Below the pieces are notes generated by a model, which was not told where the DNA came from, made no database searches, and saw nothing but the letters and a program-made list of their open reading frames with translations. The position numbers and the translations under genes were made by a program. Below, one piece after another: positions 1-64,000 of a stretch of DNA of 64,000 nt. This DNA is from Aspidiotus rigidus (Eukaryota; Arthropoda; Insecta; Hemiptera; Diaspididae), in contig JAVHKY010000052.1 in the NCBI GenBank assembly GCA_035079385.1, positions 3,720,001 through 3,784,000 of the forward strand. Reading direction: 5' to 3'. Numbering within the stretch: the stretch's first letter is position 1; every line of letters starts with the position of its first letter.

Positions 1-270
1 AGATGGACCCACGCAGGAACAGTGATAGATTTGGCGTTACTTCCTCCCCCGAGCAGTAAATTTGTTTCGAAATATCATAAAATTTTGTTCAAACCCTCCT
101 CCCAGAAAATTTTTTGCCCACCCCCACCCCCCACTCGTCGCAAATTTTCTGCATACACCACTGCCCAGAAAGTCCCTGGATATCTTGCTTATCCAACAAT
201 GAATCGCTAAACTTCGAGATGAGATCAAAAAGAAAAAACTCGCAGTCCACACAGTTGGCTGCTCGGAATT
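1..270. other. AT/C-rich flank, no gene seen
   Basis: No coding region is supported. Pyrimidine-rich runs such as the C-rich stretch near 115-135 resemble the spacer parts of the modular repeat that begins at 271. The match is too loose to call this another copy. Confidence 0.4.
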
Positions 271-982
271 GCCTTCATTAACTCTGTTAATTGAGGCAAA
301 CAGGGAACCTGTTTTATGGGAGTAATCATGTGAGTGTCATTTTTTGCTTTTTGTCGTCTCAAGTAGATTGAAAACTTTGTTCCTCACCACCTTGAGATCT
401 CTTCTCATTAGGTCAAGTTCTAGGCGCGTTTTTTTTTAGTGGTTTCCCCTGTAGGCCTAATCCACTTCAAAATTTCTATATTAGGAAAAAGTACCCTATT
501 TATGCATTTTTACAGCCTGTGTGGTACCCCCGGTAGGCCTATCCTGTTATCAGTTCGGAGATCTGATGACGTCACGATTTGATGACGTCATAATCTGTGA
601 CGTCACGATCATCGTGCCATCACTATCTGATGACGTCACAGAGCTAGTAAAACCACTAATACAGACCTCCTAGACCTAGTATAAAGGAAGCCTAAGACCT
701 AGTACAGAGCTAGGACAAACTGCTAGTATAAGCTATTGATAAAGATCTTGTAAGCTTATGGTATGAAGGATGCCTAGACCTAGTATAAAGGAGGCTTGGA
801 CCTAGTATACGCCTAGTATAATACGTAGTATACCTAGTATAATATACTGCATGAAGCAGAGAGGATAAGTCCCCCTCCTATCACTTCATCAAAATTTTTC
901 CAAGTCCCTTTTTCTTGCCCGACGGCGCCCAGCGCCCGTCATTTTCCTTCAGTTTACCCCCCGATAAAACAGGTTCCCTGTT
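271..982 (+). repeat. Modular twin-hairpin dispersed repeat, copy 1
   Basis: The copy opens with two short stem-loops in a row: ATTAAC-TCT-GTTAAT, extended by gcct/aggc, at 271-297, then AACAGG-GAA-CCTGTT at 299-313. It closes with AACAGGTTCCCTGTT at 968-982. The interior holds a segment at about 314-480 that aligns with the copy at 33.1-33.46 kb on the other strand, a run of CCTAGACCTAGTATA-type motifs (660-845), one degenerate 45-bp core unit (870-910) and a GC-rich foldback at 920-940. The same modules recur in similar order elsewhere in the window. No coding capacity is visible, so it is non-autonomous. A DINE/Helentron-like or foldback element is possible; the class is not established. 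Confidence 0.7.
567..638. promoter_or_regulatory. Cluster of four CRE-like TGACGTCA palindromes
   Basis: The perfect octamer TGACGTCA occurs at 567-574, 583-590, 598-605 and 631-638, that is four times in 72 bp, at start spacings of 16, 15 and 33 bp. TGACGTCA is the consensus site of CREB/ATF bZIP factors. It lies inside the modular repeat copy 1 and may be a small tandem amplification rather than an enhancer. Function is inferred only. Confidence 0.45.
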
Positions 983-2544: not shown

Positions 2545-2692
2545 ATACCCCTGACACATTACATCAGTTTGTATAGAGGAGTGAGACGCACTCAGTCGCT
2601 CCCTATATGAGAAACCGGAAGTAGTTTTCGTATTTCTCTCTCGAACCCAGTACCTTTTCTTAGGTAGTTTCAAAATCTGACGACGATAACTT
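2545..2692 (+). repeat. Left ~140-bp direct repeat flanking repeat copy 2
   Basis: This segment aligns along its length with 4255-4390 in the same orientation: shared landmarks are ACATTACATCAG, TGAGACGCA, TCAGTCG, GGTACC/AGTACC, TTAGGT and TCTGACGACGATA. The two direct repeats bracket modular repeat copy 2. Confidence 0.7.
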
Positions 2693-2917
2693 GCAGCTTA
2701 TTTTGTTGATTGATCGGGATTGCCTTCGTTAACTTTTACTGAGTTGATACAGACCAACAGGGAACCTGTTTTATAAGTGTTTTTTCGTTTATACTTTTTA
2801 CATAAATAAAGATTAAACTTTGTTTCACATTACCTTGGAAGTTCGAACTCAAAAGTCCATATTTCTTCAAGTCCCCCTCCTCCCTATCAGATACAGTTCT
2901 CTCTCTCCCATCATATA

Positions 2918-3830
2918 CGAGGTCTGTCAAAAAAGTTCCCGGACAATTATTTGTACGCGCCAATTGGCAACACTGGCAAGGAAACCTAATTGAATCTTGT
3001 TTTGTTGTACATACTATCGACTACCGAAATACAAAATTTCACGTTGATTCAGGAAAGGGTTTGCCATAAATTAATTTTTTGGGGAATGTCCATAAGGACC
3101 AGTGCGACGATTCCGTCTTCATGCCTTCTGTAGGCCCCAAATACTCCCATCCCATGGCATCTCATACTCGGTCGATTAGGAAGAAGTCCCTACAAGTCAA
3201 ATCAGGCGAATAAGGTGGTGGTCAAGAACTGGTGTTTGTTTTTGGGCAAAAAAACCTTTGATACCAGAGGCCGTACCATAGTTGTACACGTCAAAAAACC
3301 TTCATGGTTGTCTTCATGTTAAACTCATGAATCAAAAATCATAATTACATAATCGAACGCTCTTGTGACTGCCGCTGATACTACTAGCAACATCTTTTGA
3401 TGATTTCCGGTGAGTTTCCGCTTCATACTGTTGACGACAAATAGCGCGAACGCATAAACCGGTTTACCAGCACATGCAACAGCTGTTACCAACTCTTTCC
3501 CCACCCTGAAACGACTGGACACGTTGCACAACGCTGCACGCTCCTCGGTGGACTCTTCAAACAGAGCACATGACATATTTTTCAATTTGGCATTTACTTT
3601 TCCTGGTTTTACAAGGAATTTGATGACACTTCTTTTTCACGATCGTCACGGACTCTCAAGGACATTCCTCCAAAAAATTGATTTATGATAAACTATGCCA
3701 TTAATCAACGTGAAATTTTGGATATTGATGGTCGATAGTATAACAAAACAAGATTCAATTAGGTTTCGTTGCCAGTGTTGCCAATTGGCGCATACAAATA
3801 ATTGTGCGGGAACTTTTTTGACAGACCTTG
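2918..3830 (-). mobile_element. Degenerate mariner/Tc1-like element with ~170-bp terminal inverted repeats
   Basis: The ends carry GAGGTCTGTCAAAAAAGTTC and its inverted copy, a mariner-type terminus, next to TA at 2916-2917 and TTTA at 3831-3834. Inverted similarity continues far inward: 2918-3091 pairs with 3661-3830 over about 170 bp, much longer than the roughly 30-bp TIRs usual for mariners. On the minus strand, near 3190-3235, a broken frame reads PPYSPDL...CRDFFL, matching the C-terminal YSPDL-x-DFFLF motif of mariner transposases. The rest of the transposase is missing or unreadable, including an intelligible DDD catalytic core. An 86-codon frame at 3325-3585 is open but not recognisable. 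The element is dead. Confidence 0.75.
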
Positions 3831-3940
3831 TTTAATTGGAGAGTCAACATTTTTCCAAATCCCACTCCTATGTCCTGTAGCTTCGGGGTCGAACACAATA
3901 TTTGGATAAGCAGATTTTTCTTCGTGGTGACGAACAATAA

Positions 3941-4104
3941 CAAGAAAAATTTTAACAAGGCTTCAATCACCACTTTAAAAATTTTTATTAGAAGCGACGT
4001 TTCGATACAGTATGTGCCCGTAGATGATACCCGGCGGTATCGAAACGTCGCTTCTAATAAAAATTTTTAAAGTGGTGATTAAAGCCTTGTTTAAATTTTT
4101 CTTG
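3941..4104. repeat. Near-perfect long palindrome, possible PLE terminal remnant
   Basis: Arms 3954-4008 and 4037-4091 match at 54 of 55 positions, and pairing continues imperfectly out to 3941 and 4104 (about 68-nt arms around a 28-nt loop). The right arm with the loop contains GATGA, a short stem GATACC/GGTATC and then CGAAACGTC. This resembles the hammerhead layout found in Penelope-like terminal repeats, with the CTGATGA core altered to TAGATGA. Assignment to a PLE end, perhaps two head-to-head ends, is inference. Confidence 0.55.
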
Positions 4105-4254
4105 ACAATATTTGGAATTTTTACGTCCCGCTCTTATCATATATAGCTTGAAGGTCGAAAGTTTTCCAAGTCCCACGGCCAGCGCCCGTAATTTTTCTTC
4201 AATGTACCTCCTCCCCTCCATTCAATAAATTTCCTGTTGAAAAACAGCCTTCTT

Positions 4255-32790: not shown

Positions 32791-33100
32791 ATAGCGTTAG
32801 GGGTCGCCGGGACGCACTTCCTGATTGAATTCCAGTTTGTACTAGATCTTCACACGGTAACAAATTTTTACATTTCTATCCTAAAATTCAAGGTCGTCGG
32901 CTTGTCATTCTCACTGCACTGCACTGTCAATATGAATACAAAAAAATTACAAAATAAAAATAAGTAACGTTCTTCCAATCACCTTGTGGAGATATTGTAT
33001 CTTTTAGACCGTGCTGTTTATATATTGTGTATGCCCTACCTATGGTATATAGACTCTACAAAGGCAGATGTCTCTCTATCATTTAAGAGAGAGAAATTTG

Positions 33101-33458
33101 CTTTATGGGAGGGTAATTTGAAGAAGAATTACGGGCGCCGGGCAGCGGAGGCAAAACGTATGGCAAAAATTTCAACTTCCGAGCTATATATGAAAGAAGG
33201 GGACTTCGAAAAATTTCGAGCTTCATATGACAGGGGTGGCCGAGCTCTACCAAATAGAAAGAGGATTTGGAGAAGCTTTGGACGTCAAAGTGGATTAGAC
33301 CTACTCAGGAAACCACTAAAAAAAAATGCGGCTAGAACTTGAAGAAAAACCATCAAGGTGGTGAGGAGCAAATCAAGCTGTATAGGAATGACAATGCACA
33401 CTAGTGACTCCCATAAAACAGTTTCCCTGTTTGCCTCAATTAACGAAGTTAATGATTC
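33101..33458 (-). repeat. Modular twin-hairpin dispersed repeat, copy 3
   Basis: On the minus strand it starts with the stem ATTAAC-TTC-GTTAAT (within 33432-33458) and AACAGGGAAACTGTTTTATGGG, continues with CTCCTCACCACCTTGA, TTTTTTTTAGTGGTTTCC and TCTAATCCACTT as in copy 1, then a 45-bp-type core (GAGCTATATATGAAAG, 33180-33225) and the GC module (ACGGGCGCCGGGCAGCGG, 33131-33148). An open frame across it on the plus strand (32986-33342) is incidental. Confidence 0.75.
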
Positions 33459-33509
33459 AATGTTTTTTGTTTTTTTTTTTGCATTACAAGTTGGTTGAAG
33501 CATGATAGA

Positions 33510-36032: not shown

Positions 36033-38720
36033 CTATTCAATGCCCGCTATAGGCTTACGCTTTAGTCGTTGGGTTGACGGTTGTTCCAGTAGCTGAAGTG
36101 CCTCTATGTTTGAGTGGTCGTGGAGTCGTTTGATGTACCTTGTTGTGGCTTTTGATGCGATTTGCTGCACAGTTTCCAGAGCCAGGTCTTCGTGCAACTG
36201 TTGGTTTGTAACATACCACGGAGCTCCTGTGATTTTACGGAGTGCATTGTTCTGGAATCGCTGTAAGATCTCTATATTGCTACTTGCTGCCGAGCCCCAT
36301 ATTGGTATTCCATACGTCCAAATGGGGCGAAGAATCATGATATAAAGTAGCCTTTTGTTCCGGAGTGATAGCCGACTCTTAGCTCTGAGCATCCAGAACA
36401 TAGTGCGAAAGCGGAGTTTGAGTTGCTCTTTTTTCTTGATTATATGCACTTTCCAGTTTAGCTTACAGTCCAAGTGTAAGCCTAAATATCGGGTGCAGTC
36501 AGCGCGCTGTACAGGTTCGTCATTTATATATGTGGGGTCATATCCATGCTTTCTGAGGGCAAAGTCGACACGGACAGTCTTGGATGCATTTGTTTGGATT
36601 TTCCACCTGGTGGTCCATTCATTCACTTTGTTGACAGCTCTCTGCAATTTGGTGACTGCAGCAGTGTAATCTTCATGCGTAGCAAGTATAGCGGTATCGT
36701 CTGCAAATGTGGCCAGGGTGGAGTCCCCCTGCTCTGGAATGTCAGCAGTATATAGTGTATACAACAGGGGACCAAGAACACTGCCCTGTGGTACACCCGC
36801 TGCTATTGGCTTGTCAGAAGAGTCAGCTTCTCCATAGTGAACATAGAATCTTCTGTCGCTAAGGTAAGAAGATATAATTTGCACATGACAAGTTGGAAAG
36901 TGTTTACTGATTTTGTGGAGGAGCCCGGGCATCCATACTCGGTCAAAGGCTTGACTAACATCCAGAAATATGGATGGGCAAAACTTTTTCTCTTCCAGTG
37001 CCTTTCTAATTGCTGCTCCAACACGATGGACCTGTTCAATGGTAGAGTGCCTCTTCCTGAATCCAAACTGGTGGTCTGGGATTAAGTTCTTGTTTTCAAC
37101 TATTTTCAGTAAGCGCCTCATGTAAAGCTTCTCAAATAGTTTGGAAAGTACTGAAAGCAGGGATATTGGACGATGCGAGCTGGCTATTTCTGGCGGTTTA
37201 CCCTCTTTAGGAATCATAATTATCCTCGCCAACTTCCACTGTTTTGGTACATATTGCAGTCTTAGTACTGCATTATATAAGTAGGTTAACATTACCAGGC
37301 CTTTGCGTGGAAGCTCTTGTAGAACACGAGCCGAGATTTGATCGTGTCCTGGCGCTCTCTTAGGGTTAAGTTTCTTTTTAATCATAGCTTTGATTTCACT
37401 CGGAGAGAATAAGTCAACTACTTGCTCCTCTGTTTGGTAGAGGTCAGGAGAGATATCAGTGGCAATATCATTAGGTTGGAATCTTTGCTCAAGGTGTTCG
37501 GCAAAGACTTCAGCCTTCTCTTTATCAGATCTCGCCCAAGTATTATTTGGTCGTTTCAATGGAGAAATGTAGTCTGGTGGTTTATTTAACGAACGAGCTA
37601 CCTTCCAGAGTGAATAATCAGTGGCTTCTGTGGCTCCCAGAGTGGTTACAAAGTGATTGAAGGAATCATTGTTGTGCTCACAGATACGGGTTTTGACCAG
37701 TTTACAGAGGTTATTAAATGCCTGCTTGTGCAGAGGGTTGCGCGATAGCTGCCAACGGTGTCTTGCTTTCCTACGTTTCTGGATCAAGTCCAGGATTTCC
37801 TTGGGATAGCACGCATGATAGTGTTGTCCTTGAAAATTCATGGGTGTGGCCGATTTTGCTTCATGTTGAAGTAGTTTTGTGAAGGAATCGACTGCTTCCT
37901 CTAGTTCGTGTGGCGATTTCAGGCGTATGCGGAGGTTAACATTGTTGTTCACACCATCACGGAAAGCATCCCAGTCCGTATGTTTGTTAGTAAGTTTAGG
38001 AGCCATCTGTTTGCGTATAATGGAATTGCTAAGAGTTAGGATAAGTGGCGAGTGGTCTGAGGACAGGTCATCAATGTTCACAATTTCAGTATAGTTGGCT
38101 GATACTGCGCTTGTGATAAAAAAGTCAATGCAGTCTGGTATTTTGTCAGGATCGCTGGGCCAGTGTGTTGGTTTACCATTGGAGAGGCATTTTGCGTTTG
38201 CGTCAGCTGTGGCCTTCCATAATTGGCGGCCTTTAGTTGTAGTAGTGCGAGATCCCCAGTAAGGATGCTTGGCATTAAAATCACCACCAATGATCCATTT
38301 GCTTCCTAGATGATTGAAAAAGTGAGTGTACTGATCGGCAGTAATTTTGTGTTTTGGCGGACTATAAACCGAAGCAATGACAAGCTCAGTGCCACAGTGG
38401 AGCCTAGTGGATATGCCTGCTGCTTGGATGGGTTCGGTGCAGTAGGAGCTGATTTCATGATGTGGTATGGTGTTCCGGATATAGAGGGCAGCTCCTCCAT
38501 GCGCTGCATCTTTTGGGTGGTTGCATGTATATAGCTTGTAATTCCTTATTTCAGCATACGATCTTGACGTGAGGTGAGATTCTGATATCAGTGCTATGTC
38601 AATTTTTTCAGTATTCATGAATTGCGTTAGTTCAATCTTGCGTGCCAAGAGGCCATTAGCATTCCATGTGAGGATTTTTGTGGTTTGACGTGTAGAGGAA
38701 GCTTGGGCGGGGCGCGCCAT
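36033..38720 (-). CDS. LINE ORF2: AP-endonuclease and reverse transcriptase
   Basis: 895 residues. The N-terminal endonuclease/exonuclease/phosphatase domain (about 15-230) shows WNANG (19-23), Glu47 in SESH, GGDFNAKHPYWGS (145-157) and SDHSPL (221-226), the residues used to nick the target. The RT domain (about 490-760) has motif A FLDVSQAFDRVW (585-596), motif B AGVPQGSVLGPLLY (641-654) and catalytic FADD (672-675). The C-terminal part (GTTYGIPIWGSA-like PIWTYGIPIWG, then RFQNNALRKITGAPWYV) is as in X-element/Jockey polymerases, and no RNase H is seen. The ATG at 38718-38720 shares its A with the ORF1 stop (TAATG), so translation probably depends on termination-reinitiation. The length is normal for the clade. 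No inactivating change is visible. Confidence 0.92.
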   Translation of the reverse strand: MARPAQASSTRQTTKILTWNANGLLARKIELTQFMNTEKIDIALISESHLTSRSYAEIRNYKLYTCNHPKDAAHGGAALYIRNTIPHHEISSYCTEPIQAAGISTRLHCGTELVIASVYSPPKHKITADQYTHFFNHLGSKWIIGGDFNAKHPYWGSRTTTTKGRQLWKATADANAKCLSNGKPTHWPSDPDKIPDCIDFFITSAVSANYTEIVNIDDLSSDHSPLILTLSNSIIRKQMAPKLTNKHTDWDAFRDGVNNNVNLRIRLKSPHELEEAVDSFTKLLQHEAKSATPMNFQGQHYHACYPKEILDLIQKRRKARHRWQLSRNPLHKQAFNNLCKLVKTRICEHNNDSFNHFVTTLGATEATDYSLWKVARSLNKPPDYISPLKRPNNTWARSDKEKAEVFAEHLEQRFQPNDIATDISPDLYQTEEQVVDLFSPSEIKAMIKKKLNPKRAPGHDQISARVLQELPRKGLVMLTYLYNAVLRLQYVPKQWKLARIIMIPKEGKPPEIASSHRPISLLSVLSKLFEKLYMRRLLKIVENKNLIPDHQFGFRKRHSTIEQVHRVGAAIRKALEEKKFCPSIFLDVSQAFDRVWMPGLLHKISKHFPTCHVQIISSYLSDRRFYVHYGEADSSDKPIAAGVPQGSVLGPLLYTLYTADIPEQGDSTLATFADDTAILATHEDYTAAVTKLQRAVNKVNEWTTRWKIQTNASKTVRVDFALRKHGYDPTYINDEPVQRADCTRYLGLHLDCKLNWKVHIIKKKEQLKLRFRTMFWMLRAKSRLSLRNKRLLYIMILRPIWTYGIPIWGSAASSNIEILQRFQNNALRKITGAPWYVTNQQLHEDLALETVQQIASKATTRYIKRLHDHSNIEALQLLEQPSTQRLKRKPIAGIE

Positions 38721-38722
38721 TA
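38718..38722 (-). promoter_or_regulatory. TAATG stop/start coupling site
   Basis: The minus strand reads TAATG, with TAA ending ORF1 and ATG starting ORF2, sharing one A. The same UAAUG junction is known to couple translation of the two ORFs in the Bombyx LINE SART1, so ribosomes may reinitiate here. Confidence 0.7.
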
Positions 38723-40192
38723 TGATTTTGTGCCTATTGACTTTGAACCTGTTATATTAACTATAATAGTTAGCATTTGGTCCATGCGTTCACCTAGTTT
38801 AGTAAGCTGCAGAGTGAGATTTTCAACTAGCTTCTCTAGCAGTGTAAGACGGTTGACAGTTTGATCAGAAGTTTCAGCAGCCTCAGCGTAGGAACGGGGT
38901 GGTTGAGTTCGCCTCTTAGGTACGTTTGCGTTATTATTGATTTGACTGGAGGGGGGAGGAAGATTTTGGTTTTCACGAGTCTTTAACGGTGGGTTTCTAT
39001 TTTTTGACAATTTTTTGTATTCGGGGCACCCTCTATAGTTTGCTGTATGGCTTCCACCACAAAGGCCACATTTGGGGGGCACGTCACGTTCTTTTGTGCA
39101 TACTCTATTATCATGTTCCTCGCCACATTTCACGCAGACAATAGGGAGGGCACAATATGTTCTTGTGTGCCCATATTTCTGGCATCGCTTACATTGCACA
39201 ATGTCACGATGGGGACGGGGAGCTTCAACGCGAATAATTGTGTGTAGCAGCGTCTTTAGTTCATAGATACTTTTATTGTTATCTTTTGGTTCAAGATCAA
39301 CAAAGAATAGCGGGAGCGGTTCTTTAGTGCTCCAATGTCGGATATTAACAATATTTCTGACCTCATGCCCATTGTCATTCAAGGCCGTTTTGATTTCCTC
39401 AATGTCTGTCGAGCTGTGGAGATTTCTAATCACCACCTTGAATGCTCGATCTGTTTTCACTTGGTAAGTATAGAATTTAATGCCGTTTTCACGTAACTTT
39501 TTGACCAGAGCCCTGAATTCATCCGAAGTTTCAACTATAACTTTCACCACATTATTGGCGAGCGATTTTGTGAGAAGAGTATCTGCGTTAGTGAATTCAG
39601 ACAATTTATTCATCATACCTGAGAAACTAACAACGCCTTGTATGAAGATTGGGGGTGGTTTGGGTTCTCTTTTCTTCTCTTCATCGCCGGTTTGTTCATC
39701 CACCATGGGTAGACCCTGGAATCGATTCTTTACAGAAAGACTGGACTTTTTTTGCGTTTGCTCAGGGGAGTTTCCACTGGAACTATCATCTCGACCCCTT
39801 TTTCGTGCTGACACCGTCTGCCATTCGTTGATTAAGGGTAGTTCGGACGCAGAGGATTGACTGGACGCAGGGAGCTCCTTGGTGTTTATCTGCTCATTAT
39901 TCACTTGAGGGACGACCTGTCCATTTGACGATGCAAAATAGTCTGTTATTTTCCCATCCATTGATTTCACCATGTGATTGGATTCTTCTTTCAAATCGTT
40001 TTCACTTGTTGATCGTTGACCTTCAACCTTGTGCGTAGTGTCGGAGTTCAGTTCGCTTTTGTTTACATTTTTCTTGATGATACTTAAAATTTCTTCACTT
40101 GTACATTTACAAAGAACAACAGTTTTGCTATCAACAAGTTGTGTTTTTTTCGGACTAGTTTTGTTTGTAAATTTACGTAGCAAATTCGACAT
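38720..40192 (-). CDS. LINE ORF1: gag-like RNA-binding protein with three CCHC knuckles
   Basis: 490 residues. A polar, low-complexity N-terminal third (1-175) precedes an RRM-like/PRE_C2HC segment (about 180-330, with FKVVIRNLHSSTDIEEIK). Then come three zinc knuckles: C334-x2-C337-x4-H342-x4-C347, C353-x2-C356-x3-H360-x4-C365 and C375-x2-C378-x3-H382-x6-C389. The C-terminal tail has PPPRSYAEAA-like text and a short leucine-rich coiled coil (about 446-480). This is the architecture of Jockey/X-element ORF1 proteins, which coat element RNA and escort it to the nucleus. The start is the first ATG of the frame at 40192. The stop TAA (38722-38720) overlaps the ORF2 ATG by one base. Confidence 0.9.
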   Translation of the reverse strand: MSNLLRKFTNKTSPKKTQLVDSKTVVLCKCTSEEILSIIKKNVNKSELNSDTTHKVEGQRSTSENDLKEESNHMVKSMDGKITDYFASSNGQVVPQVNNEQINTKELPASSQSSASELPLINEWQTVSARKRGRDDSSSGNSPEQTQKKSSLSVKNRFQGLPMVDEQTGDEEKKREPKPPPIFIQGVVSFSGMMNKLSEFTNADTLLTKSLANNVVKVIVETSDEFRALVKKLRENGIKFYTYQVKTDRAFKVVIRNLHSSTDIEEIKTALNDNGHEVRNIVNIRHWSTKEPLPLFFVDLEPKDNNKSIYELKTLLHTIIRVEAPRPHRDIVQCKRCQKYGHTRTYCALPIVCVKCGEEHDNRVCTKERDVPPKCGLCGGSHTANYRGCPEYKKLSKNRNPPLKTRENQNLPPPSSQINNNANVPKRRTQPPRSYAEAAETSDQTVNRLTLLEKLVENLTLQLTKLGERMDQMLTIIVNITGSKSIGTKS

Positions 40193-40396
40193 AAGCTACA
40201 AAGCTGCCGAGTCAGCTTTTCACGCGGTCACGAGCTGCAAATGAGATGCACTCGGTGTGTATCGTTGTTATTACGAATTATTATTGTTATTATTACATAT
40301 ATATATATTTTTTTTTGAACACTAATGAGTATATTACGCGAAAAACATTAACGTGAAGGCAAACGTGCTATTCACGACAAAGACAGCGACGAACTT

Positions 40397-41285: not shown

Positions 41286-41552
41286 GCCTTTTTAACAGGG
41301 AACTTGTGTTATGGGGGGCTTTTTGAGAAATTTGCTGTGCGCCATCCGCCGTCCGGCAAAAAATTTAGAAAAAATTCGACTCTCGAGCTATATATGATTG
41401 GAGGGGGACTTGGAAAAATTTCGACTCTCAAGCTATATTATACTAGTCTTATAGTAGGTCTAGGCTTCATTGAATTTTCAATACCAAATCCCATTTGAAT
41501 CATAAAACAGGTTCCCTGCGTTCCTCGTTTAACTTCGTTAAGGAAGCCGTCG
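41286..41552 (-). repeat. Modular twin-hairpin dispersed repeat, copy 4 (short, near complete)
   Basis: On the minus strand: the stem CTTAAC-GAA-GTTAAA (about 41527-41542), GCAGGGAACCTGTTTTATG, ATTTGGTATTGAAAATTCA, GAAGCCTAGACCTAC, AGTATAATATAGCTTGAGAG, two 45-bp core units (TCCAAGTCCCCCTCCAATC, TATATAGCTCGAGAGTCG), a GC module (GCCGGACGGCGGATGGCGC) and the closing motif CACAAGTTCCCTGTTAA at 41289. At ~265 bp this is the most compact copy and a useful reference for the family. Its left half matches 63828-63990 almost base for base in inverse orientation. Confidence 0.8.
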
Positions 41553-48074: not shown

Positions 48075-48094
48075 TTATTTAATTATTTAATTTT
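48008..48094. repeat. ATTT/AATT array, block 3
   Basis: Tetranucleotide repeat abutting the minisatellite. The junction reads TTTTAACAGGGAAAG, i.e. it retains the AACAGGGA end motif of the modular repeat family. Confidence 0.85.
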
Positions 48095-48110
48095 AACAGG
48101 GAAAGAAAAA

Positions 48111-48833
48111 TTTCGACTCTCGAGCCATATATGATAGAAGGGGGACTTAGAAAAATTTCGACTCTCGAGCCATATGCGATAAAAGGGGGACTTAGACAAA
48201 TTTCGACTCTCGAGCCATATATGATAGGAGAGGGACTTGGAAAATTTTCGACTCTCGAGCCATATATGATAGGAGAGGGACTTAGAAGAATTTCGACTCT
48301 CGAGCCATATATGATAGGAGAGGGACTTAGAAGAATTTCGACTCTCCAGCCATATATGATAGAAGGGGGACTTAAAAAAATTTCGACTCTCGAGCCATAT
48401 ATGATAGGAGAGGGACTTAGAAAAATTTCGACTCTCGAGCCATATATGATAGAAGGGGGACTTAGAAAAATTTCGACTCTCGAGCCATATGCGATAAAAG
48501 GGGGACTTAGACAAATTTCGACTCTCGAGCTATGTATGATAGGAGGGGGACTTAGAAGCATTTCGACTCTCGAGCCGTTTATGATAGAAGGGGGACTTGG
48601 AAAAATTTCGACTCTCGAGCCATATATGATAGGAGAGGGACTCAGAAAAATTTCGAGACTCGAGCCGTTTATGATAGAAGGGGGACTTGGAAAAATTTTG
48701 ACTCTCGAGCCATATATGATAGGAGAGGGACTTAGACAAATTTCGACTCTCGAGCTATGTATGATAGGAGGGGGACTTAGAAGAATTTCGACTCTCGAGC
48801 CGTTTATGATAGAAGGGGGACTTGGAAAAATTT

Positions 48834-48906
<73 letters not shown>

Positions 48907-48967
48907 AGCCATATATGATAGGAGAGGGACTCAGAAGAATTTCGACTCTCGAGCCATATATGATAAG
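48111..48967. repeat. 45-bp minisatellite, block 1 (16 whole units + one expanded unit)
   Basis: The unit begins TTTCGACTCTCGAGCC, then (A/G)TATATGATAG, (G/A)AG(A/G)GGGACTTAG and AAAAA. Units start every 45 bp from 48111 to 48831 without indels, so 16 are complete; the next is split by (CT)n. Variant units (CATATGCGATAAAAG, TATGTATGATAGGAGG, CGTTTATGATAGAAGG) recur in fixed order. As 45 is divisible by three, long open frames run on both strands (284 codons plus, 277 minus). They encode only a 15-residue repeat and are not called as genes. The same unit occurs singly in the dispersed modular repeats. Confidence 0.95.
48837..48905. repeat. (CT)n microsatellite grown inside a 45-bp unit
   Basis: About 34 CT units stand exactly where a normal unit has CGACTCTCGAG, so the dinucleotide run expanded from the CTCTC seed. 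Confidence 0.95.
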
Positions 48968-49147
48968 GATTATTTAATTATTTAATTATTTATTTATTTA
49001 TTTATTTAATTATTTAATTATTTAATTATTTATTTATTTATTTATTTATTTAATTATTTAATTATTTATTTATTTAATTATTTATTTATTTAATTATTTA
49101 TTTATTTAATTATTTAATTATTTAATTAAATAATTATTTAATTATTC
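48968..49147. repeat. ATTT/AATT array, block 4
   Basis: About 180 bp of tetranucleotide repeats separating the two minisatellite blocks. Confidence 0.95.
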
Positions 49148-49455
49148 ATATATGATAGGAGAGGGACTTAGAAAACTTTCGACTCTTGAGCTATATATGA
49201 TAAGAGAGGGACTTGGAAAAATTTCGACTCTCGAGCCATATGCGATAAAAGGGGGACTTGGACAAATTTCGACTCTCGAGCTATGTATGATAGGAGGGGG
49301 ACTTAGAAGAATTTCGACTCTCGAGCCGTTTATGATAGAAGGGGGACTTGGAAAAATTTCGACTCTCGAGCCATATATGATAGGAGAGGGACTTAGAAAA
49401 ATTTCGACTCTCGAGCTATATATGATAGAAGGGGGACTTAGAAAAATTTCGACTA
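49148..49455. repeat. 45-bp minisatellite, block 2 (6 whole units)
   Basis: Units start every 45 bp from 49177 to 49402; the last breaks off at TTTCGACTATTTATTT. Units 2-5 here repeat the variant order seen at 48471-48650, a 180-bp higher-order pattern. Confidence 0.95.
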
Positions 49456-49899: not shown

Positions 49900-51890
49900 T
49901 CGGGGTCTGGCGAGAGAAAAGACATGGAACATGTCAAAAAAAAATAGTGTATCTACAAACCAATTAATATTAAACCCCAGAGTTACTCCCTTTGTTTTAT
50001 GTGCCTTACCCAAATTTGTAAATATGTAACAGAAATAAAAGTAGAGTACTTTGTGTTCACATAAAAATTTTGAATACAGGTCCAGGGAAGTTATCTGGAG
50101 CATTTCTACTTTTATTATTTTTTTTTTTTTCAATATCCAGAGTAGAAATACATACATAATTTTACTGAGAAAAATTATTTTTATTTACATATTTTCCATA
50201 AGAATTTGCTTCATCAATAATTTATTGATAATTTCTTACTTCTTCTGTTTTATAATGAGTGATGATAAGACAATATGAAGAAAAGAATGATTTTGAAAAT
50301 TCAGATGACACAAATATCAAAAAATGTATAAGATTAAATGAAAAAATTAATATATATAAGTACTGTATATTCGAATTCCAAAAAAGAAGAAATGTCTCAA
50401 AATAAAATACGTGATAACGAGAGAGGCTTCTTGCTAGTTTATACTAAATGCGTTCACCCTAATAATAATTTTGTATTTTTTATTTAAACAATTAATTTCC
50501 TTGAATCATTTGAACATGATTGTGTTACTTGGTATTCTACTATTTATCGCAAATATATAATTATTATTATGAACTTACTTCTCACAATTGAATTGATTAC
50601 GATAAATACGAAAAAAAAAATCTTTTCATTTAAAATTTTGAATCAGTTTTTTATGAAATTTTTTGCTTTAAAACAATGAAAAAGATGACACCCTACACAA
50701 TCGTACAGATCAAGTTTTTTGAACTGAGCTCTATCCTCTTCTATGGAGTTCTAGCGCAGCCGAGATATTTATTTTCTTAGACATATGAGCTCATATTATA
50801 CTTTCTCATCAGTTTTATTCTTTATTAACCATAATGAATGATAGTAATTTTCAAACACTCGATAGTACGAGTAGCCAAAACTCTTTCTTTTCTTCTGCAC
50901 GCGCACTCTCTCTTTCATCATATTGTAAAATGCTGAGTGTATAGAAAACGATTGAATTGCTTCAGTGACAGAGTAAGCGTTTTTATTTTATTTCTTTTAC
51001 GACTACTAAAGATGAAGTTTTCCTAATTACCACGACTCGACTCCGCTTCAAAGACACCTGCAACTGAAGAGGCAAGCATTGTGAAACATACGGTCTAGAT
51101 TCTCTTTTTGGATTGACGTTCGGGAGTGGTATAGAAATAATCTTTTCTATTTCATATAGGTACTTATTCTTTTTATAGCTTCAAAATATTGCATTTGTGT
51201 CATTTTTTTATGGTGAGAACGTCTTTTAAAAGGCGCGATAAAATCTCGGTTTAATGTTGCACGATGGTTAAGTGAATTGGTTACATACGCTCATAATGTA
51301 TATGTGTACATAGCCTATAGATCTATAATTTCTGACATCAGTTTCTAATTTTTTAAAAATTAGCTGTACGTATTAACCACATGTGTATTTTGTCGACGCT
51401 TTGAAGTTATGAGTAACGAGATACCTACGCCAATATCGCGGAGTACGTAATTGCATTAACAGAATATTGTATGATAGACACAAATACTACATGAAAGATC
51501 ATAATTATAGAAGAAATTATTAACCCGAACTCCCTCTATGAGAGATGAAGTCAAGCAGACTAATAGAATCGAGTTTCATAATTCTATTCCTAGCTGACAT
51601 ACTCGTACTAACGTAAAACTTTTTCTGGATCAAAAAAACTTTGTGTTTAGTTTCTCTAATTGGTTATATGGATCAATATCAAATGTCTGATGCGTGGAAT
51701 TTCAAGAGAAGAGGTGGTCATCATTTCCATAAAAATGATTTCCTTGACACTGCACTGTCTAACATTTGTGCAAACTTCGATATAATCGTTGCATAAAATA
51801 ATACATGATATGACCCCCCATTAGGATAGCCTCTTCGAGTAACGAGACGTGCAATGTTTCATACACCAATTGACTTACCCCCTTCAATAA
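49900..51890. other. Gene-free AT-rich stretch
   Basis: No recognisable coding or repeat signal apart from poly-A/T runs. Confidence 0.4.
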
Positions 51891-51898
51891 ACCAGATA

Positions 51899-52180
51899 TG
51901 CAATGCTTCAAACACCATAAGTCACCCTTCTATTATATATTACGGCTCGGGAGTCAACATTTTCTAAATACCCCTCCTATCATATATAAATTGAGAGTAA
52001 ACATTTTCCCACGTAGCAACCCCCCCCCCCCCATCATATATAGCTCGAGAGTCGAAGTTCTACAATTTCCCCTCCTATCATATATAGCTTGAGAGTCAAA
52101 ATTTTTTCAAGTTTCTGGTTGAACGGCGCATGGGAAATTTTTCAAACCCCCCTCAAGAACAGGTCAACTGATGAAAATTT
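51899..52180 (-). repeat. Modular repeat, copy with four degenerate 45-bp units
   Basis: Units near 51930, 51975, 52035 and 52080 read CATATATAGCT(C/T)GAGAGTCGAA on the plus strand with C-rich joints (poly-C 52021-52033), followed by GAACGGCGCATGGG and CTCAAGAACAGGTCAAC, a worn terminal motif. Confidence 0.65.
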
Positions 52181-63670: not shown

Positions 63671-63790
63671 ACGACGGCTTCCTTAACAAAGTTGAACGAA
63701 GAACGCAGGGAACCTGTTCTATGAGTCAAATTGATTTTGGTATTGAGACGAGATGGTGGAAGACTCTACATATGAGATAAACAAAGTTCC
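63671..63790 (+). repeat. Modular twin-hairpin repeat, end segment a
   Basis: ACGACGGCTTCCTTAACAAA, then GCAGGGAACCTGTTCTATGA and GTCAAATTGATTTTGG, after which similarity fades. It is repeated 157 bp further on. Confidence 0.75.
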
Positions 63791-63827
63791 TAAAGATTTA
63801 GTTTTCGCCAAATACCAAGAGAAAAAA

Positions 63828-64000
63828 CGACGGCTTCCTTAACGAAGTTAAACGAGGAACACAGGGAACCTGTTTTATGAGTCAAATGGGATTTGGTATT
63901 GAAAATTCAAGGAAGCCTAGACCTAGGCCTAGACCTACTGTAAGCCTAGTATAATATAGTTTGAGAGTCTAAATTTTCCTCGAATCTCCAGCTATGATAG
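63828..64000 (+). repeat. Modular twin-hairpin repeat, end segment b (runs off the window)
   Basis: ACGACGGCTTCCTTAACGAA, ACAGGGAACCTGTTTTATGA, TCAAATGGGATTTGGTATTG, then GCCTAGACCTAGGCCTAGAC and AGCCTAGTATAATATAGTTT leading into a 45-bp-type core at the window edge. It is the inverse of 41400-41552. Confidence 0.8.

What the first reader, a model, noticed from the sequence alone, without database searches (positions are those of the whole stretch)
271..982. A modular, apparently undescribed non-autonomous repeat family with twin hairpin ends
At least six copies (271-982, 2721-4243, 33101-33458, 41286-41552, 51899-52180, 63671-64000) share an ordered set of modules: a TTAAC-nnn-GTTAA stem, an AACAGG-GAA-CCTGTT stem, CTAGACCTAGTATA motifs, one or more 45-bp core units, a GC-rich foldback, and a second AACAGGTTCCCTGTT at the far end. 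Copy length varies from ~265 bp to over 600 bp because the core is variable. Hairpin ends plus an internal tandem-repeat zone recall DINE/Helentron elements, but I see no Helitron-type CTRR terminus.
Basis: partly seen in the sequence, partly recalled or inferred. Interest (0 to 1): 0.8.

Follow-up and report, generated by a model that had tools for sequence, protein, structure and literature searches.

The report
Hairpin-ended rolling-circle hitchhiker DNA
This is a family of small non-coding jumping-DNA copies of the Helentron type, which carry their own tandem repeats around the genome, probably by borrowing enzymes; the family looks new but the kind is well known.

Summary
The repeat family is real and genome-wide: in the window's own 441-Mb eukaryote genome the 271-982 query gave 2256 first-look candidates, and all 40 that were scored matched. 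The element is window 238-982, minus strand: T-run | AACAGG-GAA-CCTGTT, GC-rich foldback, tandem repeats, AACAGG-TTC-CCTGTT, a 27-nt hairpin, a terminal hairpin, GAG | T-run. That is the published layout of HINEs, non-autonomous partners of Helentrons (PMC4067079). Two usable paralogous empty sites show insertion into T-runs with no non-T duplication. The genome also holds a Rep/helicase/endonuclease Helentron type whose 5' ends have the same geometry but other letters (T-run | GACGTG-GAA-CACGTC): a sister family, not the partner. No coding element with AACAGG ends was found, but that search is incomplete because the genome service stopped answering. At least two subfamilies differ in their 3' ends. 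The 45-bp core also forms satellite-like arrays in the window. Verdict: new member of a known kind.

The parts
238..982 (-). Complete HINE, subfamily A; 5' end at 982, 3' end at 238; T-run on both sides (A-runs on + strand)
   Evidence: Ends from 20 aligned genome copies: right end shared by 20, left end by 17; profile hit 1-762 (this copy is one of the 18 in the profile)
968..982 (-). 5' palindromic subTIR AACAGG-GAA-CCTGTT, abutting the T-run
   Evidence: folds as a 6-bp stem with 3-nt loop (z -3.1 for the 93-nt end)
299..313 (-). 3' subTIR (inverted copy of the 5' one), 61 nt from the 3' end
   Evidence: Inverted pair I4, 22 nt, 95%; hairpin
271..297 (-).
   Evidence: DNA fold of 238-320(-), z -4.25, 0 of 200 shuffles as stable
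242..263 (-).
917..940 (-). GC-rich foldback near the 5' end
863..908 (-). Core unit related to the 45-bp array unit
   Evidence: profile positions about 70-145 hit the arrays
669..844 (-). CTAG-rich tandem units (CCTAGACCTAGTATA type)
560..639 (-). Tandem 16-bp TGACGTCA units
2689..4238 (-). Diverged copy with both ends, broken by two foreign inverted-repeat elements
33095..33463 (+). Diverged copy; 5' subTIR decayed, 3' subTIR and TTAAC hairpin kept, terminal GC hairpin absent
41294..41552 (+). Short subfamily B copy; 3' end ...GGAAGCCGTCG then T-run
63828..64000 (-). Subfamily B copy; its 5' subTIR lies just past the window (64056-64070 in window numbering)
63672..63744 (-). Subfamily B 3'-end fragment
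   Evidence: weak, E 0.006
48091..48841 (+). TTTTAACAGGGA (first 8 letters of a 5' subTIR after four T) running straight into a 16-copy 45-bp array; a second array at 49147-49454
   Evidence: the 8-letter match was not tested against chance

Best explanation
The family is a HINE: a non-autonomous member of the Helentron (Helitron2-type) rolling-circle transposons. A Helentron Rep/helicase/endonuclease protein supplied in trans nicks at the T | AACAGG 5' end, the helicase peels off a single strand, the 3' hairpins mark where to stop, and the freed strand (possibly circularised) is joined into a T-run elsewhere, so no duplication of non-T target sequence arises. The internal tandem units expand or contract during copying and sometimes grow into satellite-like arrays. 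SHOWN: the ends, hairpins, T-run target, lack of non-T target duplication at two usable empty sites, copy relatedness, and a Helentron-type gene set in the same genome. INFERRED: the enzymatic steps, which protein moves this family, and the route of array growth.
For: Sharp shared ends in 20 aligned copies (L010 and L011 have the same flanks, so 19 sites). Of 40 fetched places, all 40 scored, 34 had a 5' end by a strict motif, 30 a 3' end by a fuzzy motif, 25 both (in L047 and L035 the fuzzy 3' match is imperfect). Of those 25, 22 have at least 3 T at the 5' side, 23 at the 3' side and 20 at both, against 4.4% background; two pairs of near-identical loci (L010/L011, L036/L037) are inside the 25. 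Empty sites: L013 filled T5 + element + T4 against T5 in a 94% paralog about 1 kb away; L016 filled CCAC-T5 + element + T3-CAAC against three 74-76% paralogous alignments with 5, 6 and 5 T. 3' end hairpins z -4.25, 5' end z -3.1. Layout agrees with PMC4067079 passages and sections 6-7. Helentron-type genes: L082 has Helitron_like_N + DUF6570 in one open frame and PIF1 + Exo_endo_phos in the next; L081 and L082 Reps have FFKRIEFQHRGSPHAH and YVVEYVNK, with the published Helentron-diagnostic S between G and P. 5' ends of 3 loci are T-run | GACGTG-GAA-CACGTC, and a fourth has one mismatch.
Against: No coding element with the AACAGG subTIRs was found: 0 of 30 Rep loci at up to 2 mismatches (3.3-3.5 kb each), 0 of 5 ten-kb Rep loci as an exact match (L083 has one 15-mer with 2 mismatches, L082 one with 3) and 0 of 5 further Rep-upstream regions at up to 3 mismatches. 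The test is weak: the motif could be read in 23 of the 30 top loci and is the canonical-Helitron RGL type in all 23. Subfamily B's 3' end does not fold better than shuffles (z -0.54). Filled sites hold 4-5 extra T, so a T-only duplication cannot be told from element-borne T. Only 2 of 25 copies gave usable empty sites; L041 and L023 were too diverged to count T, and the other junction-spanning matches (L021, L022, L026, L027, L036, L037) were to low-complexity or HINE-related sequence and were dropped. Only L082 was seen with helicase and endonuclease, in a separate frame, and the endonuclease match (E 7e-5) is below Pfam's cut-off.
Confidence: 0.93

Rival explanations
1. A cut-and-paste MITE with 22-bp palindromic inverted repeats that duplicates TTTT on insertion.
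For: 22-bp inverted pair I4; filled sites have 4-5 T more than empty sites, which a T-run duplication would also give.
Against: One of the inverted repeats is not terminal: it is 61 nt inside the 3' end, followed by two hairpins. T-run lengths range from 0 to 7 at the 5' side and 0 to 10 at the 3' side. Helentrons of this genome have the same 5' end geometry.
Confidence: 0.04
2. A canonical Helitron derivative.
For: The genome has many canonical Helitron Reps (151 PF14214 matches from 150 scored of 368 candidates; RGL motif in 23 of 23 readable of 30 loci).
Against: The ends are T|AACAGG and GAG|T, not the TC and CTRR that I recall for canonical Helitrons; palindromic subTIRs are a Helentron trait.
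Confidence: 0.02
3. A SINE-like retroposon read on the plus strand, with a short A-tail and 5' truncation.
For: Plus-strand copies end in AAAA and 3 of the first 20 are truncated at the other end.
Against: A-runs lie on both sides; the two usable empty sites show no target duplication outside the A/T-run; hairpin ends and same-geometry Helentrons.
Confidence: 0.01

Closest known systems
HINE-Mo families of the mite Metaseiulus occidentalis (Thomas et al. 2014, PMC4067079; passages and sections 6 and 7 read)
   Same: Palindromic 12-15 bp subTIRs near the 5' end and 38-60 bp from the 3' end, 3' palindrome, tandem or microsatellite repeats in some copies, T-rich target, no target-site change seen.
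   Different: Its subTIR letters were not seen by me (figure and supplement); here the 3' subTIR is 61 nt from the end, a 27-nt hairpin lies between it and the terminal hairpin, and there are CTAG and TGACGTCA tandem blocks. A partner was identified for two mite subfamilies, not here.
Cg_HINE elements of the oyster Crassostrea gigas (PMC7492417; passages read)
   Same: Satellite-like tandem units carried between HINE end modules; T-rich targets, no TSD; no autonomous partner could be linked there either.
   Different: Oyster subTIRs are normally 11-12 bp with a separate 7-12 bp complementary repeat, not self-palindromic 15-mers.
Drosophila DINE-1 / INE-1 (as described in PMC4067079 passages)
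   Same: subTIRs, 3' stem-loop, central repeats, TT target.
   Different: DINE-1 subTIRs are not palindromic and DINE-1 has a conserved core sequence.
Helentron-type loci of this same genome (L081, L082, L086, L089)
   Same: T-run followed by a 15-nt palindrome with 6-bp stem and GAA loop.
   Different: GACGTG stem instead of AACAGG; Rep present at all four places, helicase and endonuclease seen only in L082.

Membership tests
HINE (non-autonomous Helentron) | Palindromic 12-15 bp subTIRs, one near each end, inverted to each other | tested here: met
   15 bp; inverted pair I4 22 nt, 95%
HINE (non-autonomous Helentron) | 5' subTIR 2-4 nt from the end; 3' subTIR about 38-60 nt from the end | tested here: met
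   5' abuts the T-run; 3' is 61 nt from the last base before the T-run, one nt over the published range
HINE (non-autonomous Helentron) | Palindrome close to the 3' end | tested here: met
   Subfamily A. Subfamily B: weak single fold, z -0.54
HINE (non-autonomous Helentron) | T-rich/TT target without target-site modification | tested here: met
   T-runs in 20 of 25 copies on both sides; 2 usable empty sites. T-only duplication cannot be excluded
HINE (non-autonomous Helentron) | Tandem or microsatellite repeats in some copies | tested here: met
HINE (non-autonomous Helentron) | Autonomous Helentron with the same subTIRs (at least 11 bp identical) | tested here: inconclusive
   None found in 30 + 5 + 5 Rep loci; the wider search (PF20209) did not complete from then on
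Helentron (coding, in this genome) | Rep + PIF1 helicase + AP-type endonuclease, with S in the RG-S-PHxH motif | tested here: met
   L082, over two open frames; endonuclease match E 7e-5, 23.1 bits against a cut-off of 27.4. RPA gene not looked for
Canonical Helitron | 5' TC and 3' CTRR ends (recalled) | tested here: not met
   Ends are T|AACAGG and GAG|T
TIR transposon / MITE | Inverted repeats at both termini | tested here: not met
   The 3' one is 61 nt inside
TIR transposon / MITE | Fixed-length target duplication | tested here: inconclusive
   No non-T duplication at L013 and L016; a T-only one cannot be excluded

The most novel reading that the evidence does not exclude
The subTIR is a two-part code. 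Its frame nACnnG-GAA-CnnGTn next to a T-run is shared by this HINE and by the genome's GACGTG Helentrons and would be what any Helentron Rep recognises, while the free stem letters set the family. One Helentron could then drive HINEs with a different subTIR, which would explain why the oyster HINEs and this one lack an obvious partner.
Probability: 0.12. Interest if true: 0.5.

Novelty: new member of a known kind. Interest (0 to 1): 0.27.

Why it matters
It adds a well-delimited HINE family, with exact ends and T-run targets and with a 45-bp unit that also stands in satellite-like arrays, in a genome that also holds a coding Helentron type. If the shared GAA-loop frame is what Rep reads, it would give a testable rule linking orphan HINEs to their drivers. 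For annotators it prevents a misfiling as MITE, SINE or unknown repeat.

Tried and rejected
Rejected: SINE reading (A-runs on both sides), MITE reading (one repeat 61 nt inside, no non-T duplication), canonical Helitron (ends wrong). 51899-52180 was rejected as a full copy. The top 30 PF14214 loci were first taken as possible partners; the catalytic motif could be read in 23 of 30 and was the canonical RGL type in all 23, so that negative says little. A candidate 3' subTIR of L082 (L091 minus 2582, 2 mismatches) was not accepted: no T-run follows and a chance match is plausible by my own rough estimate, not computed in a call. Exact-palindrome scans of L087, L088 and L090 gave no palindrome of this kind abutting a T-run (L087 has a 5-bp stem with a 4-nt loop after a T-run at 2009). 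A family-profile search of the Rep loci hit only internal tandem-repeat stretches in L054 and L081, no ends. The end string was found in 0 viral contigs, no phage record matched the element and 0 PMC papers held the string. Literature on the kind was searched; apart from the three papers named as read, those are listings only. Species not identified.

Not reached: a genome-wide search for DUF6570 (PF20209) with loci, 3'-end mapping of the Helentrons, a genome search with the end sequences and a wider empty-site search, because the genome search gave no answer.

Full report
What was checked. The finding names six places in a 64-kb window. A search of that genome with window 271-982 gave 2256 first-look candidates, of which 40 were scored and all 40 matched; besides the window's own copy, 11 matched over (almost) the whole query at 82-90% identity and the others in pieces. 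Counts are lower bounds.

True ends. Twenty of the 40 copies were fetched first with flanks and lined up. On the window's plus strand the right point is AACAGGTTCCCTGTT followed by AAAA, at 982, shared by all 20. L012, L014 and L020 keep the 5' end but lack all or part of the terminal hairpin. L010 and L011 have the same flanks (99.9% identical over 3.7 kb); the other flanks differ. Read on the minus strand the element is T-run | AACAGG-GAA-CCTGTT ... AACAGG-TTC-CCTGTT, a 27-nt hairpin, a GCAGC...GCTGC hairpin, GAG | T-run. With the other 20 places, 34 of 40 have the 5' end by a strict motif, 30 the 3' end by a fuzzy motif and 25 both; the strict motif undercounts, since a looser scan saw a T-preceded palindrome in L032, L045 and L049 too. 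In L047 and L035 the fuzzy 3' match is imperfect. L036/L037 are a second near-identical pair.

Structure. The 3' end folds into three hairpins with z -4.25 (-2.99 for a consensus version) and the 5' end into its palindrome plus GC-rich foldback with z -3.1. Between the ends lie tandem blocks: 16-bp TGACGTCA units, CTAG-rich units, and a core unit related to 45-bp arrays elsewhere in the window. Eighteen aligned copies (L022 and L026 left out for length) have mean pairwise identity 0.946 (0.871-0.999) outside gaps; some copies are therefore probably recent.

Target. Of 25 two-ended copies, 22 have at least 3 T before the 5' end, 23 after the 3' end and 20 at both, against 4.4% of flank positions preceded by TTT. 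The flanks of the 25 copies were joined in a script and matched to the DNA fetched so far. Two copies gave usable empty sites. L013 has a 94% paralog close by with five T where the filled site has five before and four after the element. L016 has three alignments of 74-76% (two in overlapping stretches of L013, one in L045) with five, six and five T. L041 and L023 have paralogs too diverged to count T; the paralog of L023 is in the window's own retrotransposon frame. Other junction-spanning matches (L021, L022, L026, L027, L036, L037) were to low-complexity or HINE-related sequence and were dropped. No non-T sequence is duplicated at L013 or L016. Filled sites hold 4-5 extra T, so element-borne T and a T-only duplication remain indistinguishable; PMC4067079 reports a like uncertainty for mite HINEs (section 6). 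In L036/L037 a subfamily A copy ends in TTTT and a subfamily B copy begins at once.

Subfamilies. Window 41294-41552, 63828-64070 and part of L036 share the 5' end but have another 3' end, close to CGTTCCTCGTTTAACTTCGTTAAGGAAGCCGTCG (or ...CGTCA) then a T-run. This B form is about 245-260 bp and its 3' fold is not better than shuffles. Window 33095-33463 has a third 3' variant.

The enzymes. The genome has 151 matches to Helitron_like_N from 150 scored of 368 candidates. Of the top 30 loci the catalytic motif could be read in 23, all of the RG-L-PHxH type, whereas L081 and L082 have RG-S-PHxH, the published Helentron signature (PMC4067079 section 7). L082 has DUF6570 + Helitron_like_N in one open frame and PIF1 + Exo_endo_phos in the next, with the two-tyrosine motif YVVEYVNK; the endonuclease match (E 7e-5, 23.1 bits) is below Pfam's cut-off of 27.4. 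In L081 the likeness to L082 stops before the helicase. Sequence shared by L081 and L082 begins exactly at TTTT | GACGTG-GAA-CACGTC; L086 has the same 15-mer after a T-run and L089 a one-mismatch form. L087, L088 and L090 showed none. So a Helentron type of this genome carries a 5' palindrome with the same 6-bp stem, GAA loop and T-run contact as the HINE, and shares nACnnGGAACnnGTn with it. It is a different family by the 11-bp rule of PMC4067079. The comparison was made after the fact, its odds were not computed, and chance agreement of some letters is not excluded.

What was not found. No coding element with AACAGG ends was seen in 30 + 5 + 5 Rep loci, and a family-profile search of the loci fetched up to then (L051-L085) hit only internal tandem-repeat stretches in L054 and L081, plus one hit at E 0.94 in L082. 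The end strings occur in 0 papers of the PMC library and 0 viral contigs (records of this genome may be left out there); Repbase and Dfam could not be consulted.

How it most likely works. By analogy with Helraiser, where a 3' hairpin acts as terminator and its bypass or loss gives truncations and transductions (PMC4778049, passages), a Helentron Rep in trans would nick at T | AACAGG, the helicase would peel the strand, the hairpins at the 3' end would set the stop, and the strand would enter a T-run. The 3'-truncated copies fit this. The array that starts on TTTTAACAGGGA at window 48091 and continues as 16 copies of the 45-bp unit fits growth of the element's own core; a link between HINE central repeats and classical satellites is reported for the oyster (PMC7492417, passages). 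These steps are inferred.

Verdict. This is a HINE, confidence 0.93, a new member of a known kind. The most interesting open point is whether the shared GAA-loop frame lets one Helentron drive HINEs with other stems.

Noticed in passing
window 48091-49454: Two 45-bp arrays (16 and 7 copies) with CT and ATTATTTA microsatellites between them; the first begins directly on TTTTAACAGGGA, the start of the HINE 5' end.
   Followed up: partly
window 49921-49935: Another 15-nt GAA-loop palindrome, GACATGGAACATGTC, beside a long A-run, close to the second array; possibly an end of a further Helentron/HINE family.
   Followed up: no
window 36033-40195 (-): Two long overlapping open frames: endonuclease + reverse transcriptase (907 aa) and a PRE_C2HC protein (491 aa), a largely open non-LTR retrotransposon. 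A paralog of one HINE target site (L023) lies inside it.
   Followed up: partly
window 2914-3834 and 3941-4104: Two foreign inverted-repeat elements (97-nt arms 94% and 68-nt arms 97% complementary) nested in the diverged HINE copy.
   Followed up: no
L054:2138-2487: CTAG-rich stretches like the HINE's internal tandem block sit right at the end of a 554-codon canonical-type Helitron Rep frame (E 9e-10).
   Followed up: no
L081:7382-10000 (+): An open frame of at least 873 codons made of tandem repeated units that read like zinc fingers, 2 kb downstream of a Helentron Rep; seen by eye only.
   Followed up: no
L084:2726-8029 (-): A 1768-aa open frame with OTU protease, Helitron_like_N and PIF1 domains, RGL motif: a canonical-type Helitron with an N-terminal OTU domain.
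   Followed up: partly
L003 and L004 (G000:C9 and C61): 3.7-kb stretches 99.9% identical on two contigs, so the assembly may hold both haplotypes, which could give allelic empty sites.
   Followed up: no
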